A DNA stretch of 64,000 nucleotides. It comes from an uncultured Lachnospiraceae bacterium (GTDB lineage Bacteria > Bacillota > Clostridia > Lachnospirales > Lachnospiraceae). The DNA is taken from assembly GCA_900317585.1 (NCBI GenBank), contig ONHG01000007.1:1-64000 (forward strand). Direction: 5' to 3'. Positions 6,141-43,231 of the stretch are shown here, piece after piece (the stretch's first letter is position 1; each line of letters begins with the position of its first letter). The notes below the pieces were generated by a model, which saw nothing but the letters and a program-made list of their open reading frames with translations, ran no database searches and was not told the DNA's origin. The translations under genes and the position numbers were made by a program.

Positions 6141-6282
6141 TTTCTACTGTCTCCTTAATATATTATATAGTTTAATTTCGATTTAATATGGACATTGTTT
6201 CCATTTATAAATCTAATATACCTATTATAATCATCTAGAGTACTTTTTGCAATGGTTGATATTATTTATACGCATTTGCAGT
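6141..6282. other. Upstream region of the symporter gene
   Basis: This AT-rich stretch contains the symporter's ribosome binding site and presumably its promoter. No convincing -35/-10 pair or RNA motif was found. It ends at the first palindromic element. Confidence 0.4.
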
Positions 6283-6424
6283 ACGTGTGGTGGCACATGG
6301 CAGGTGTCGTGAGTGCTACGCTATACTGTCAAGATACTGTACGAATTATGCCTCAAAAACTTTCTTAACTTGACGAAACCGTCGCTATTCGCTCTAACGA
6401 CACCTGCCATGTGCCACCACACGT
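6283..6424 (-). repeat. Palindromic element A: perfect 28-bp inverted repeat, shortened relative of elements B and C
   Basis: The arms 6283-6310 (ACGTGTGGTGGCACATGGCA, then GGTGTCGT) and 6397-6424 are exact reverse complements. The 86-base interior, read on the minus strand, contains GACGGTTTCGTC, then GCATAATTCGTACAGTATCTTG, split here as GCATAATTCG and TACAGTATCT, and TAGCGTAGC. These are the 3' core segments of element C (plus strand) and partly of element B. The half carrying the two AYGGAY hairpins is missing. It therefore appears to be a deletion derivative in the opposite orientation to B, 23 bases away. Confidence 0.85.
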
Positions 6425-6447
6425 AACGCAAATTCACCACAACATAA

Positions 6448-6720
6448 GGAACGTAAGCCCCGGGTACCGCTGGCGCACACGTACTCCCGCCGGAGCGCAT
6501 AGCGAAGTGGCTTAGATACTGTAGAAATTATGCCCACAAAACGCAGAAATACCCAGCCATGGACGGCTGGGTAAGGCGTTATGCGCCACGGACGGCGCAT
6601 AAAAGCCGTTTTCGTCAAGCATCGAAACACTCAAAGCATAATTTCGTACAGTATCTTAGCCACGCAGCGTAGCGACAGTGGGAGTACGTGTGCACCCGTG
6701 GTACCCGGGGCTTACGTTCC
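6448..6720 (+). repeat. Palindromic element B with TwoAYGGAY-like core
   Basis: This 273-bp imperfect palindrome has arms of about 86 bases. The outer 21 bases (from GGAACGTAAGCCCCGGGTAC) pair perfectly; further blocks pair, including CACACGTACTCCC and GATACTGTA. The plus-strand core has two perfect hairpins: ACCCAGCC-ATGGAC-GGCTGGGT (6551-6572) and TTATGCGCC-ACGGAC-GGCGCATAA (about 6579-6602). Both loops match AYGGAY, the hallmark of the TwoAYGGAY candidate RNA as I remember it. The element begins 11 bases after the metF stop codon, so metF transcripts run into its antisense strand. Transcription from the plus strand is not shown. Confidence 0.8.
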
Positions 6721-6731
6721 GTACTATTATC

Positions 6732-17714: not shown

Positions 17715-18918
17715 CGTTAATAACCTCCGAAACTACGGCCCTTGCATGACCGTCTATCAGATATATATCTATGTCATCGCCTGCATTGATATCGGATACA
17801 CTGTGCAGTGCACCTTTCTTTTCCACCTCAACATACGCATAGCCCTGCGCCAGCTTTTTGGCCGGTGAATATGCATCCAGTGTACCTGAAAGCAGTGCCA
17901 GACGCTGTCTGCAATCCGAAAGCCTCTGCTTCATAATCCTTTCAAGTGCATCCTCGATATCTGACAGACGCCTTTTATTCTCATTTAGTTTATTCTGTGG
18001 ACTAAGGAAATTAAGTCTTGTTTTAATATGTGACAGCTTTTCCCTGAAAAAATCAATCCGGCCTGTCAGATTTCTGTCCATCCTGCGGCGCAGATTGTCA
18101 AGGCGCTCCAACGTCTGTCTGTAGTCACTGACTGCAAGCTCTGCAGCCGCTGAAGGTGTGGGTGCTCTCCTGTCTGACACAAAATCCGCTATCGTCCAGT
18201 CAGTCTCATGGCCTACTGCCGAGATGATTGGCGTGCGGCAGTCAAATATGGCTCTCGCCACAATCTCCTCATTAAAGGCCCATAAATCCTCTATGGAGCC
18301 TCCGCCTCTGCCGACTATTATCACATCAAGATTCATCGCATCCAATGTCTGTATGCCCTTCACTATGCTATTAGCCGCACCCTCTCCCTGCACAAGTGCC
18401 GGATAAAGTATGACCTGTACATATGGATTCCTGCGCGACGATACATTCCTTATATCCTGCACGGCCGCGCCTGTCGGTGCTGTAACCACACCAATACGGC
18501 CGGCATACTGTGGAATAGGCTGCTTGTATTCTGCCGCAAACATGCCCATCTCCTCAAGCTCACGCTTTAGCTGCTCGAATTTGAGATACAGATTGCCCTC
18601 TCCGTCAAGCTCTATCTTTTTGGCATAAAGCTGATAGGCACCTGTCTTCTCATACACCTCAACGGAACCTGTCACAATAACCTGGTCTCCCTCCTTCATG
18701 TGGAAGGAAAGTCCTGCAGCCCTGCTGCCCGCAAACATGATTGCGTTCATGGCTGCTCCCGCGTCCTTTATTGTGAAATAAATATGACCGCTCGTGTGAT
18801 ACTTACAGTTGCTCACCTCGCCCTTTATGCTCACCTGTCTGAGCATAAAATCCTGAGCGAACATATTTTTAATATAGCTATTTACTTGCGCTACCGAATA
18901 TATATTTCTATTTGCCAT
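17698..18918 (-). CDS. xseA: Exodeoxyribonuclease VII large subunit
   Basis: The 406-residue protein has an N-terminal OB fold (YSVAQVNSYIKNMF ... VSIKGEVSNCKYHTSGHIYF, to about residue 100), the catalytic core with VVTAPTGAAVQDIRNV and the GRGGGSIEDLWAFNEE motif (about 190-210), and a C-terminal coiled coil. The ATG at 18918 is preferred; a TTG six bases upstream is also possible, and neither has a strong ribosome binding site. folD, which lies between nusB and xseA in Bacillus, is absent here. Confidence 0.94.
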   Translation of the reverse strand: MANRNIYSVAQVNSYIKNMFAQDFMLRQVSIKGEVSNCKYHTSGHIYFTIKDAGAAMNAIMFAGSRAAGLSFHMKEGDQVIVTGSVEVYEKTGAYQLYAKKIELDGEGNLYLKFEQLKRELEEMGMFAAEYKQPIPQYAGRIGVVTAPTGAAVQDIRNVSSRRNPYVQVILYPALVQGEGAANSIVKGIQTLDAMNLDVIIVGRGGGSIEDLWAFNEEIVARAIFDCRTPIISAVGHETDWTIADFVSDRRAPTPSAAAELAVSDYRQTLERLDNLRRRMDRNLTGRIDFFREKLSHIKTRLNFLSPQNKLNENKRRLSDIEDALERIMKQRLSDCRQRLALLSGTLDAYSPAKKLAQGYAYVEVEKKGALHSVSDINAGDDIDIYLIDGHARAVVSEVINDEQRK

Positions 18919-39673: not shown

Positions 39674-40189
39674 TTATATAAGCATTATTGATATCATAAT
39701 CCCTCCCAAAATACCCACCGGACAAATCACCTTCATTTTTTCAACATAATCTTTCCTGTAAAAATCTATCTGTTTATGTATGTCCAAAGCACATTCCTTA
39801 AGCCGCTGCTCCATCGCAGCTGCATTTTTTTCAAAGAATGCACCTCCCATTTCAACTATCATTTTCTTTATTTTTTCATCAGATATCCTGCCACAAAGCA
39901 CAGTCCCCCACACAGCCCTCCAGCCCTCCTCTCCGCTTTTACAGCTCCTGTTTGAAAGTGCCTCTCCCATTCTCCTGCAGCCCTCATTAAACACCTCGCT
40001 CTTTCCTCTTATGCTGTTAAAAAACTGTGGTGCCTTCATTCTTTCTCCTGCCAGATAAAATGCCCCCTTTTCAAGCAAAAGCATGAAATCATACAGCATC
40101 GCTATATCTGCCTTTTTTCTTTTGCTGTAATCGTTTATCAGCCCCAATATCGCAAACAGTACTATACAAAAGCCTGTAAGCTTCATCAT
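39674..40189 (-). CDS. spoIIIAB: Stage III sporulation protein AB
   Basis: The 171-residue protein is the same length as in Bacillus. It has an N-terminal helix (MKLTGFCIVLFAILGL), a charged helical middle and a C-terminal hydrophobic anchor (VGILGGIMISIMLI). It is related to GspF-type platform proteins. The ATG lies 101 bases inside spoIIIAA in another frame; since both reading frames keep normal family lengths, the overlap appears real. Confidence 0.9.
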   Translation of the reverse strand: MMKLTGFCIVLFAILGLINDYSKRKKADIAMLYDFMLLLEKGAFYLAGERMKAPQFFNSIRGKSEVFNEGCRRMGEALSNRSCKSGEEGWRAVWGTVLCGRISDEKIKKMIVEMGGAFFEKNAAAMEQRLKECALDIHKQIDFYRKDYVEKMKVICPVGILGGIMISIMLI

Positions 40190-41039
40190 AAATGCTATAG
40201 CGCCTCACCCCTTTTTCATCATGGTCTATAAACACAAACCGTTCTATGGCATGTGGCAGAATTTTTCTTCGCAGATCATCTGCATTGGTGCCATGTACAC
40301 TGCCAAGTATCCTTATTCCGCAACTCACAAGCTGATTTAATGCCTCGATATCACCTTCTCCTCCCAGCTCATCCACCGCAATCACATCCGGGGACATAGA
40401 GCGCAAAAGCATCCTCATGCCAAGTGACTTCGGACAGTTATCCAGCACATCACTGGAATTGCCTATATCGTTTTGAGCCACTCCCAAGTAGCACGCTGCT
40501 ATCTCCGAGCGCTCATCGACCACCGACACCTTAAGAGCTTTTTTTCCGTCACAGCCATCTGAAAGTATCCTTATGCAGTCTCTTAAAAATGTTGTTTTTC
40601 CTTCTCCCGGCCGTGATATAACCAATGTATTGTAAATGCTGTTTTCATCCCGGATATAAGGCATCAGTGGCATTGCAACGTCCTTTATCTGATGGGCAAT
40701 TCTGATATTTAAGGACGCTATCTCACTGACTGCTGTAACCTTTCCTCCATCGCAGCCCATCTGCCCTGCAATTCCCACACGATGACCTCCCTCCACTGTA
40801 AAATAGCCTGCTGCAAGCTGCGGTGCTATCGCGTGGAATGAATATCCGCTCAGATAATTTATCATCTCCTCAATATCGCTATGTGAGATATACACTCCGG
40901 CTCTACATCCTCCCGCAAACATATACTGCACCTGCTTTCCGGCGCGCACCCTGATTTCCTCCAGACCACACGGCATGTACGCTTCTGCCTCAGCCTTCAT
41001 CTTTTGTGGCAGATAATCAATTATATCCATATTTTTCAC
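40089..41039 (-). CDS. spoIIIAA: Stage III sporulation protein AA, secretion-type ATPase
   Basis: The 316-residue ATPase has Walker A SRPGEGKTTFLRD (about residues 139-151), Walker B SPDVIAVDELGGEGD (about 213) and the later GSVHG motif. It is predicted to energise the SpoIIIA channel in the mother cell. AAGGAG lies eight bases before the ATG. The arm of palindromic element C begins 16 bases upstream of the start codon, so the operon promoter must be inside or beyond that element. Confidence 0.93.
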   Translation of the reverse strand: MKNMDIIDYLPQKMKAEAEAYMPCGLEEIRVRAGKQVQYMFAGGCRAGVYISHSDIEEMINYLSGYSFHAIAPQLAAGYFTVEGGHRVGIAGQMGCDGGKVTAVSEIASLNIRIAHQIKDVAMPLMPYIRDENSIYNTLVISRPGEGKTTFLRDCIRILSDGCDGKKALKVSVVDERSEIAACYLGVAQNDIGNSSDVLDNCPKSLGMRMLLRSMSPDVIAVDELGGEGDIEALNQLVSCGIRILGSVHGTNADDLRRKILPHAIERFVFIDHDEKGVRRYSIYDEAYRLLYSTVCDIGADKRLQQKKKGRYSDAV

Positions 41040-41054
41040 TCCTTATCGCCACTT

Positions 41055-41329
41055 CGGTGGCAGGTCGGGATAGGGCTTATGCGTGTGGCTGCAGTGTCGC
41101 AGAAGCGTATAGCGGAGCTATTTAGAGTCTGTTAAATTATGCTTTGAAGCACAGAAATGCCGAGGCATGGACGCCGAGGCAAGGAGATATCGAGCCCGGA
41201 CGGCGAGTATCGACGGTTTCGTCAGGCATAGAAGTACTTACTGCATAATTTATACAGAGTCTTAATAGCGCAGCGTAGCTTCTGCGACACTGCAGCCACA
41301 CGCGTGAGCCCTATCCCGACCTGCCACCG
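41055..41329 (+). repeat. Palindromic element C with TwoAYGGAY-like core, directly upstream of spoIIIAA
   Basis: This 275-bp palindrome has outer arms pairing perfectly over 23 bases (from CGGTGGCAGGTCGGGATAGG) and again over 26 bases (GCGTGTGGCTGCAGTGTCGC plus AGAAGC). The plus-strand core repeats the plan of element B: AGAAATGCCGAGGC-ATGGAC-GCCGAGGC, AAGGAGATATCGAGCC-CGGAC-GGCGAGTATC, then GACG-GTTT-CGTC and GCATAATT. Both hairpins contain CGAG facing CGAG, which can form tandem G-A pairs. The second loop reads CCGGAC where B has ACGGAC. Arm sequences differ from B, but complementarity is kept. Confidence 0.82.
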
Positions 41330-41344
41330 ACAGTTATTCAAATT

Positions 41345-41437: not shown

Positions 41438-43231
41438 TTACATCCTGTCAGGAGCTGAGAATCCAAGCATATCGATACAAGCCTCAAGTATCTCCTTTGT
41501 GAGCACAAGCAGCGAAATATATGACTTCTTAAGCTCTTCATTCTCCTCAGAAAGAATCTTTGTGTCATGGTAGAAGCCGTTGAATGCGTTGGCAAGCTCG
41601 TAGATGTATGCACATATCTTGTGTGGTGCAGACTCCTCGTATGCACTCTCAATTGTAGCATTGAACTTTGCCAGAGAGAGCATGAGATTCTTCTGTCCTG
41701 CATTGACTGCCGGCATGATTGCATCCTTCAGTGCGCTGATGTCGCCACCCTTTGCCTCATACTTTGACAGGATTGACTTGATACGCACGATTGTATAAAG
41801 TATATATGGACCTGTGTTACCCTCAAAGGATGTAAATCTGTCGATATCAAAGATGTAATCCTTGCTCGCCTGATTGGACAAATCACCATACTTGACTGCT
41901 GCAAGCGCTACAGTTTTGGCTGTCTGCTCAGCCTCCGCCTCGTCTATATTCAGATTCTCTTTTTCCTTCTGGTTTTCCTTAATCTTATTGAGCATCTCAT
42001 CGTCAATTTCCTTGAGGAGGTACTCAAGACGCATTACTCCACCGTCTCTTGTCTTGAAAGGCTTGCCGTCCTTACCATTCATGGTTCCAAAGCCGATATG
42101 TACAAGCTCTGTAGTATCAGGTACTATGCCTGTCTTTCTTGCGCAGCGGAACACCTGGATAAAGTGCATTGACTGACGTGCGTCTGCCAGATAAATCACA
42201 CGGTCAGGGTTGTTCTCCTTCATACGCATAACAAGTGTTGCAAGGTCTGTAGTGCTGTAAAGTGAAGCTCCGTCAGACTTTAGGATGATACATGGCGGAA
42301 TCTCCTTTGTATCTGTATCCTCCTTCACATCCACAACCAAAGCACCCTCACTCATATGTGCAAAGCCCTTTTCCTTCATCATTTCAACCATCTCAGGTAC
42401 ATATGGCTGCGCATCCGACTCGCCCTTCCACAGCTCAAAATGGACGTTCAGATTCTCATAATTTCTCTTAAGGTCTGTTACAGAGACATTCATGATGTGT
42501 GAAAGCAGTGCCTGATAGCCTCTCCTGCCTCCCTGGAGCTCCTTTGTGGCAAGAAGTGCTGCCTCCTTGAAGCTCTCATCTGATTTTGACTTACCGCTGG
42601 CTGTCGGATAGATGTCCTCAAGCTCTGATATGGTAAACGGTGCCTCCTTCGGGTACTCTCCTGTATAGCTCTCATCAAAATAAACGAGGTCAGGCTTTCT
42701 CTCGCGAAGCTCTGTAATGATAAGTCCCATCTGAAGTCCCCAGTCACCGAGATGCACATCACCAATCACATTGTGTCCCATGAACTTTGCGATACGCTTA
42801 ACGCTCTCTCCGATTACTGCTGAACGAAGATGACCTACATGAAGAGGCTTTGCCACGTTTGGTCCGCCGTAATCCACTACTATAGTGAGTGGCTTTTTGG
42901 CCTTCTCCAAGCCGTATCTGCCCTCATCATCCTTCATATCGTTCATATATTTTGCCAGAAAAGCGGTATCCATTTTGATATTAAGAAATCCCGGCTTTAC
43001 TGATTCTACTGACTCAAACATCTCATCTGACTCAAGTAGCGCCGCTACCTTGTCTGAGATCATAAATGGTGCACACTTATACTCTTTTGCTGCTGCCATT
43101 GCTCCGTTACACTGGAACTCACAAAGGTCCGGTCTGTTTGAAAGTGTAACCTTTCCGTACTTCTCGTCATATCCTGCACTGACGAATGTCTTTGTCACTT
43201 CCTCTGATATCAAATTAATCAGTTTTTTCAT
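41438..43231 (-). CDS. argS: Arginyl-tRNA synthetase
   Basis: The 597-residue class I synthetase has an N-terminal Add-1 domain, the HIGH-type motif in PLHVGHLRSAVIGE (about residues 131-144), the arginine-site region, and the C-terminal anticodon-binding (DALR) domain ending in GFSAPDRM. The KMSKS site is replaced by KTRDGGVMRLEYL, as in many ArgRS. It charges tRNA-Arg, including the CCG tRNA in this window. No T-box leader is seen; a small hairpin (43252-43271) precedes its AGGAGG site. Confidence 0.96.
   Translation of the reverse strand: MKKLINLISEEVTKTFVSAGYDEKYGKVTLSNRPDLCEFQCNGAMAAAKEYKCAPFMISDKVAALLESDEMFESVESVKPGFLNIKMDTAFLAKYMNDMKDDEGRYGLEKAKKPLTIVVDYGGPNVAKPLHVGHLRSAVIGESVKRIAKFMGHNVIGDVHLGDWGLQMGLIITELRERKPDLVYFDESYTGEYPKEAPFTISELEDIYPTASGKSKSDESFKEAALLATKELQGGRRGYQALLSHIMNVSVTDLKRNYENLNVHFELWKGESDAQPYVPEMVEMMKEKGFAHMSEGALVVDVKEDTDTKEIPPCIILKSDGASLYSTTDLATLVMRMKENNPDRVIYLADARQSMHFIQVFRCARKTGIVPDTTELVHIGFGTMNGKDGKPFKTRDGGVMRLEYLLKEIDDEMLNKIKENQKEKENLNIDEAEAEQTAKTVALAAVKYGDLSNQASKDYIFDIDRFTSFEGNTGPYILYTIVRIKSILSKYEAKGGDISALKDAIMPAVNAGQKNLMLSLAKFNATIESAYEESAPHKICAYIYELANAFNGFYHDTKILSEENEELKKSYISLLVLTKEILEACIDMLGFSAPDRM

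What the first reader, a model, noticed from the sequence alone, without database searches (positions are those of the whole stretch)
41055..41329. Second full copy: arms diverge in sequence but remain self-complementary
Elements B and C are nearly the same length (273 and 275 bp) and share the central core (AGAAAT...ATGGAC..., AAGG, CGGACGGCG, TTTCGTCA, GCATAATT). Their outer 50-60 bases are unrelated, yet each pairs with itself over long perfect stretches (23 and 26 bp in C). Independent arm sequences with maintained complementarity suggest that the long stem is selected, or is regenerated by a copying mechanism such as hairpin replication or gene conversion between arms.
Basis: partly seen in the sequence, partly recalled or inferred. 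Interest (0 to 1): 0.8.

Follow-up and report, generated by a model that had tools for sequence, protein, structure and literature searches.

The report
Inverting RNA repeats with self-matching arms
A gut bacterium carries dozens of scattered copies of a known but unexplained RNA, each wrapped in a long self-matching stem whose two halves seem to copy each other and sometimes turn the middle around; the RNA is found mostly in motile species that also have the regulator protein it looks built to bind.

Summary
Window 41054-41330 has 53-nt arms, 96% complementary, around a core that is Rfam RF01731, TwoAYGGAY, a family of unproven function. The genome holds 33 copies. Arms match themselves (median 83% within a copy) far better than other copies (54%; shuffled 48%). 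Against a close genome (3% flank divergence), 6 of 25 shared sites have the core inverted in place; in 22 usable pairs 15 arm positions changed alike in both arms (at most 1.7 expected) beside 79 one-sided changes. This matches the published footprint of template switching, so 'copying between arms' is favoured; RNA-level selection on the arms has weaker support. Both loops form C-ANGGAN-G hairpins, the high-affinity CsrA site, in 88 of 105 copies (C itself keeps one). TwoAYGGAY-bearing genomes have csrA in 62 of 65 (family sample) and 24 of 28 (class sample), against 148 of 332 and 71 of 263 of the others. Flagellin tracks it equally (64 of 65), so CsrA and motility are not separated here. 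CsrA binding is a published hypothesis; the co-occurrence, arm behaviour and inversions did not turn up in my searches.

The parts
41054..41106 (+). left (5') arm of element C
   Evidence: inverted repeat I1, 96% complementary
41278..41330 (+). right (3') arm of element C
   Evidence: inverted repeat I1
41110..41276 (+). core of element C: TwoAYGGAY RNA (RF01731)
   Evidence: cmscan 129 bits, gathering 43
41167..41172 (+). loop 1 of C, AUGGAC on a stem (intact C-ANGGAN-G site)
   Evidence: sequence and Rfam alignment
41197..41201 (+). loop 2 of C, CGGAC: first A missing, predicted weaker CsrA site
   Evidence: sequence; Rfam alignment shows the gap
6445..6488 (+). left arm of element B
   Evidence: inverted repeat I2, 91% complementary
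6680..6723 (+). right arm of element B
   Evidence: inverted repeat I2
6500..6670 (+). core of element B: TwoAYGGAY RNA, loops AUGGAC 6559-6564 and ACGGAC 6588-6593
   Evidence: cmscan 151.3 bits
6274..6433 (-). element A: shortened copy on the other strand, arms kept, AYGGAY hairpins missing, head to head with B
   Evidence: inverted repeat I3; similarity to core C at 6315-6392 minus; no Rfam match at E 0.1
40089..41039 (-). spoIIIAA, left neighbour of C
   Evidence: TIGR02858 257.8 bits, below its cut-off 281.3
41438..43231 (-). argS, right neighbour of C
   Evidence: TIGR00456 431.5 bits, over cut-off 261.65

Best explanation
Element C is one of 33 dispersed copies of the TwoAYGGAY RNA in a genome close to Agathobacter rectalis. 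(1) Shown: each copy is a structured core, nearly always with two conserved ANGGAN hexaloops 28-30 nt apart on one strand only, inside a long stem whose arms differ between copies. (2) Shown between close genomes: the arms change in concert and the core can be inverted in place. (3) Inferred: the cause is DNA polymerase switching templates between the arms (or recombination between them), which re-copies one arm from the other and can turn the spacer round; the arms then drift freely in sequence while staying complementary. (4) Inferred: when transcribed on the core strand the RNA binds CsrA dimers through its two loops, as CsrB/RsmZ do, with the long stem holding and protecting the core. (5) Inferred: copies spread in the past as mobile units by an unidentified agent and are now lost mainly by deletion.
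For: Family. Core folding as RNA: many pairs with several Watson-Crick types; leaving out the invariant G-U pair, the two loop-closing A-C positions and one gapped pair, 78 G-U against 12 A-C cells in 69 copies of G000 and G008, orthologues counted twice (sums by hand). Loops: both C-ANGGAN-G hairpins in 88 of 105 copies, one in 16, none in 1; 0 of 105 on the reverse strand. High-affinity CsrA/RsmE site is an ANGGAX hexaloop directly on a stem (PMC4005645, passages). csrA in 62 of 65 TwoAYGGAY genomes against 148 of 332 without it (Fisher 4e-16); class sample 24 of 28 against 71 of 263 (1e-9); outside the window's family 20 of 24 against 66 of 257 (3e-8) (tests). Arms: 15 concerted against at most 1.7 expected, 79 one-sided, 913 columns, 22 of 25 pairs; 6 of 25 inverted. 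Third strain: 46 perfect arm pairs and the same length change in both arms. Template switching is reported to cause arm homogenisation and spacer inversion (PMC8604942, abstract and passages) and proposed to maintain RNA stems (PMC8794818, passages). Mobility: present in 25 of 62 genus genomes; the site of C has no Rfam match in L178-L181, where argS is followed by a spoIIIAA-like start (the start by eye).
Against: Flagellin co-occurs as tightly as csrA (64 of 65 against 149 of 332), so CsrA is not singled out. csrA is in 58 of 62 genus genomes but TwoAYGGAY in 25; of 14 control genomes 3 have csrA and 0 TwoAYGGAY. 3 of 65 and 4 of 28 bearers show no csrA (G229 and G418 91-93% complete, G379 a complete contig; the 4 are 80-95% complete in 130-400 contigs). 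In the class sample only 20 of 28 bearers pass the gathering score, 17 of these with csrA. C has one intact loop. No transcription or binding data. One-sided arm changes are frequent, G-U bias in G000 is not significant, and a strand-biased mutation process would mimic it. G000 is a draft, 86.6% complete, so single inversions could be assembly errors.
Confidence: 0.6

Rival explanations
1. Arms are kept complementary by compensatory selection on RNA pairing alone, one mutation at a time, with no copying between arms.
For: Arm mismatches lean to G-U on the core strand in G008: 70 against 24, 19 copies up and 4 down. Core pairs covary with clear G-U tolerance. Concerted changes are mostly transitions, 10 of 15 (from, rows L010, L014 and L039 dropped).
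Against: In-place inversion of the core at 6 of 25 sites needs strand exchange between arms. The transition share is about the same for one-sided changes (49 of 79). Concerted changes come in clusters (5 in L038, 4 in L017) and include a one-base length change in both arms. One-sided mismatches are not purged.
Confidence: 0.2
2. A transposon-like DNA hairpin: a non-autonomous element moved by a transposase that rebuilds one arm from the other at each move.
For: A GTAAG-like end at the 5' boundary in 39 of 69 G000/G008 copies, at the 3' boundary in 8; patchy spread; head-to-head pairs in units of 0.8-1 kb at four sites in G005 with shared ends CCAAATGATGGTTTGT.
Against: No clearly clean empty site between G000 and G008 among 18 of 25 entries compared: 8 scars (L026 and L032 the least certain), 2 half-deleted, 2 in one partly deleted pair, 3 shared after all, 3 unreadable. 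Arms of copies that have not moved still change in concert. No target-site duplication or transposase was found; neither was searched for systematically.
Confidence: 0.25
3. A site-specific invertible switch in which a recombinase flips the core.
For: 6 of 25 shared sites inverted.
Against: Arms share no common sequence across most copies; inversions go with arm homogenisation, which a site-specific recombinase would not cause. No recombinase search was made.
Confidence: 0.07
4. The CsrA link is only lineage: TwoAYGGAY lives in motile clades for other reasons and does not bind CsrA.
For: Flagellin co-occurrence 64 of 65; csrA alone is not sufficient.
Against: Both loops keep the CsrA hexaloop while stems vary; the association recurs outside the family.
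Confidence: 0.3

Closest known systems
TwoAYGGAY RNA motif, Rfam RF01731
   Same: Core sequence and structure; 129 and 151.3 bits in the window.
   Different: The Rfam match ends at the inner stem; here some 30-60 further paired bases on each side, different in each copy. [quoted passage not shown]
CsrB / RsmX,Y,Z CsrA-sequestering RNAs
   Same: Repeated ANGGAN hexaloop hairpins; two sites per RNA at a spacing that a dimer could span (spacing rule recalled).
   Different: Dispersed, multicopy, two sites per copy, in Clostridia; homology not tested; no regulation known.
Inverted-repeat template switching (PMC8604942, PMC8794818, passages)
   Same: Arm homogenisation plus spacer inversion.
   Different: In the passages seen, inverted spacers are a few bases and arms 10-16 bp; here arms are about 50 bp and the spacer about 170 bp, at many loci.
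MITEs / REPIN-like palindromic repeats (recalled)
   Same: Small dispersed intergenic palindromes.
   Different: Arms are not shared by most copies; no transposase or duplication identified.

Membership tests
TwoAYGGAY (RF01731) | covariance model score over gathering threshold 43 | tested here: met
   129 bits for C, 151.3 for B
TwoAYGGAY (RF01731) | two AYGGAY hexaloops | tested here: inconclusive
   C has one intact loop and one lacking its first A; 88 of 105 copies in four genomes have both in the form C-ANGGAN-G
CsrA-sequestering RNA (CsrB/RsmZ type) | several ANGGA hairpin loops | tested here: met
   88 of 105 copies with two, 16 with one, 1 with none; C has one intact
CsrA-sequestering RNA (CsrB/RsmZ type) | host encodes CsrA | tested here: met
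   own genome has 2 csrA matches; 62 of 65 and 24 of 28 bearers
CsrA-sequestering RNA (CsrB/RsmZ type) | binds and sequesters CsrA | not testable with these tools
   needs a binding assay
MITE | terminal inverted repeats shared by copies | tested here: not met
   in G000 arms differ between copies, median 54% against 48% shuffled, though about 11% of copy pairs exceed the 99th percentile of shuffles
MITE | target-site duplication at insertions | tested here: inconclusive
   8 sites read as scars; G005 composites show none by eye
Site-specific invertible element | same recombination site in the repeats of different loci | tested here: not met
Template-switched inverted repeat | arm homogenisation and spacer inversion between close relatives | tested here: met
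   15 concerted columns in 22 pairs; 6 of 25 inversions

The most novel reading that the evidence does not exclude
The copies form a dispersed, self-mending, phase-variable CsrA sponge. CsrA loops exist on one strand only (0 of 105 on the other), so each in-place inversion would switch a locus between making and not making a CsrA-binding transcript, and template switching between the arms keeps every copy able to flip.
Probability: 0.1. Interest if true: 0.88.

Novelty: new variant of a known kind. Interest (0 to 1): 0.6.

Why it matters
TwoAYGGAY was described in 2010 and I found no report of a proven function. Two genome samples now tie it to csrA-bearing, flagellated lineages, and its loops match the best CsrA site, so one binding experiment could settle it. 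The arms also give many parallel natural replicates of how long RNA stems stay complementary: by copying between arms, not only by stepwise compensation.

Tried and rejected
Rejected: rolling-hairpin or flip-flop transposition as the present source of fresh arms, since no clear new insertion was seen between G000 and G008 in the 18 of 25 entries compared (L040, L065, L106, L110, L111, L137 and L158 were not compared; L018, L100 and L104 could not be read). Cis-regulation of neighbours: neighbour orientations in 33 copies are 9, 9, 9 and 6 (open frames only), although Rfam tags the family Cis-reg. A genome-wide solo-arm repeat family: BLAST gave 15 matches in two genomes, the strongest beside known elements; G008:2051374-2051423 was not checked. 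Phage carriage of the core of B: no match.

Corrected on the way: loci from the genome search are not re-oriented, so strand counts are superseded. mis-located L014, L022 and L028; one search replaces it. Dropped before the concerted count: L014 (same site, different arms and core subtype), L010 and L039 (arms misaligned); with L039 the count is 17. Positional flank counts for L065 are frame-shifted; one search replaces them. Tables of csrA and flagellin were read by eye and typed into. Genome copy numbers are lower bounds (at most 37 candidates scored per genome); searches scored only 6 and 9 candidates per genome, so presence there may be missed. From G008, G005 and G010 I used 36, 21 and 15 copies out of at least 37, 24 and 22.

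Full report
What is there. C has 53-nt arms at 41054-41106 and 41278-41330, 96% complementary, around 171 nt. The core 41110-41276 is Rfam RF01731, TwoAYGGAY, at 129 bits; B at 6500-6670 scores 151.3. Element A (6274-6433) is a shortened copy on the other strand, head to head with B. C lies between argS and spoIIIAA (spoIIIAA scores below its cut-off). In L178-L181, records whose argS is 77-84% identical in the best segment, argS is followed after a short gap by a spoIIIAA-like start (by eye) and no Rfam family reaches its gathering score, so C is an insertion relative to them.

How many. The own genome has 33 copies. In those two samples only the best 6 or 9 candidates per genome were scored. 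Presence is patchy. Several copies form head-to-head pairs (coordinates, by eye); in G005 four pairs sit in a unit of about 0.8-1 kb with shared ends. Neighbouring open frames show no preferred orientation: 9, 9, 9 and 6 of 33. The core of B gave no match in 50,697 phage records and matched one plasmid-labelled A. rectalis record at 4 places.

Arms. Within a copy the arms are 83% identical (median of 33), between copies 54%, shuffled 48%. Arms of C resemble those of 0 of 32 other copies; those of B resemble 10 of 32. G008 is a close genome (98% over 3.1 kb at this locus; flank divergence 3.0%, core 2.5%, L014 left out). At 6 of 25 shared sites the core is inverted between the arms while the flanks stay put (alignments). 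In 22 of these 25 pairs, 913 arm columns hold 79 one-sided changes and 15 identical changes in both arms; independent mutation gives at most 1.7. Concerted changes number 0, 1, 1, 2, 0, 5 in the flipped copies and occur in 3 of 16 unflipped ones. Transitions are 10 of 15 concerted and 49 of 79 one-sided changes. A third genome, A. rectalis DFI.5.28, has at the site of L065 both arms changed alike, including a one-base length difference, with 46 perfect pairs where G008 has several mismatches; flanks differ at 15 of 676 positions. At the site of L021 its arms equal those of G008.

Losses. I compared 18 of 25 entries that at first looked confined to G000 or G008 (by eye): 8 are deletion scars (L026, L027, L032, L034, L109, L101, L117, L136; L026 and L032 the least certain), 2 are half-deleted (L033, L037), 2 belong to one partly deleted pair (L107), 3 are shared after all (L010, L019, L024) and 3 could not be read. 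None is a clearly clean empty site. Copies thus look individually dispensable. At the L014 site the two genomes carry different arms and core subtypes inside the same flanks.

Selection or copying. Arm mismatches are G-U compatible on the core strand in 70 against 24 in G008 (19 copies up, 4 down), 31 against 21 in unflipped and 8 against 4 in flipped G000 copies. A strand-biased mutation process would give the same sign. The core shows a much stronger G-U preference and compensatory pairs. I conclude that the core is held by RNA selection, while the arms are mainly held by copying. The literature describes the same two signatures for template switching, homogenised arms and inverted spacers (PMC8604942, abstract and passages), and proposes that it maintains RNA stems, while calling the evidence for that role circumstantial (PMC8794818, passages).

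Function. Weinberg 2010 (PMC2864571, one table row) lists the motif as probably RNA and probably not cis-regulatory; Rfam tags it Cis-reg. Gardner and Eldai 2014 (PMC4333381, passages) proposed CsrA binding from the loop motif. I tested this by computation. Both loops form C-ANGGAN-G hairpins in 88 of 105 copies from four genomes (G000 and G008 copies partly orthologous), one in 16, none in 1, and 0 of 105 on the reverse strand; spacing 28-30 nt. The best CsrA/RsmE site is an ANGGAX hexaloop directly on a stem (PMC4005645, passages). csrA is in 62 of 65 bearers against 148 of 332 others in the family sample and in 24 of 28 against 71 of 263 in the class sample (17 of 20 for bearers over the gathering score); outside the family 20 of 24 against 66 of 257. 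The limits: flagellin is in 64 of 65 bearers against 149 of 332, so CsrA and motility are confounded; csrA is in 58 of 62 genus genomes where TwoAYGGAY is in 25; genomes are related and were counted as independent. C itself keeps only loop 1.

Novelty. Searches for TwoAYGGAY (7 papers) and AYGGAY, and for CsrA RNAs and A. rectalis repeats, listed nothing on these arms, inversions or the co-occurrence; this covers only the held open PubMed Central papers, of which I saw listings and the passages named. A 2025 preprint remarks that the two loops differ in stability (PMC11661157, passages).

Noticed in passing
L119, L120, L123, L124 (G005), about 1100-2130: Composite unit of about 0.8-1 kb with two head-to-head TwoAYGGAY copies and shared ends CCAAATGATGGTTTGT at four sites, 82-97% alike; no long open frame inside the one checked, L123.
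   Followed up: partly
L016 and L105, between the head-to-head pair: Tandem units of about 59 bp resembling the 5' arm with its CCACAAC leader; 2 of 3 units folded are more stable than all 200 shuffles, single arms of B and C are not.
   Followed up: partly
L014 / L155: Same site and flanks in two close genomes but different arms and core subtype; perhaps a tandem pair with a different member deleted in each.
   Followed up: partly
G000:C39:18942-19076 and 18222-18629: A second, lower-scoring csrA match lies about 300 bases from a flagellin match; several genus members have such extra csrA matches.
   Followed up: no
NZ_CP143948.1 (L204-L207): Record labelled plasmid carries rpoC, an RNA polymerase beta gene, ribosomal protein genes, proS and ftsH, so it is probably a piece of chromosome or a mis-assembly.
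   Followed up: no
window 6274-6433: Element A lacks the AYGGAY hairpins but keeps 43-nt arms 91% complementary.
   Followed up: partly
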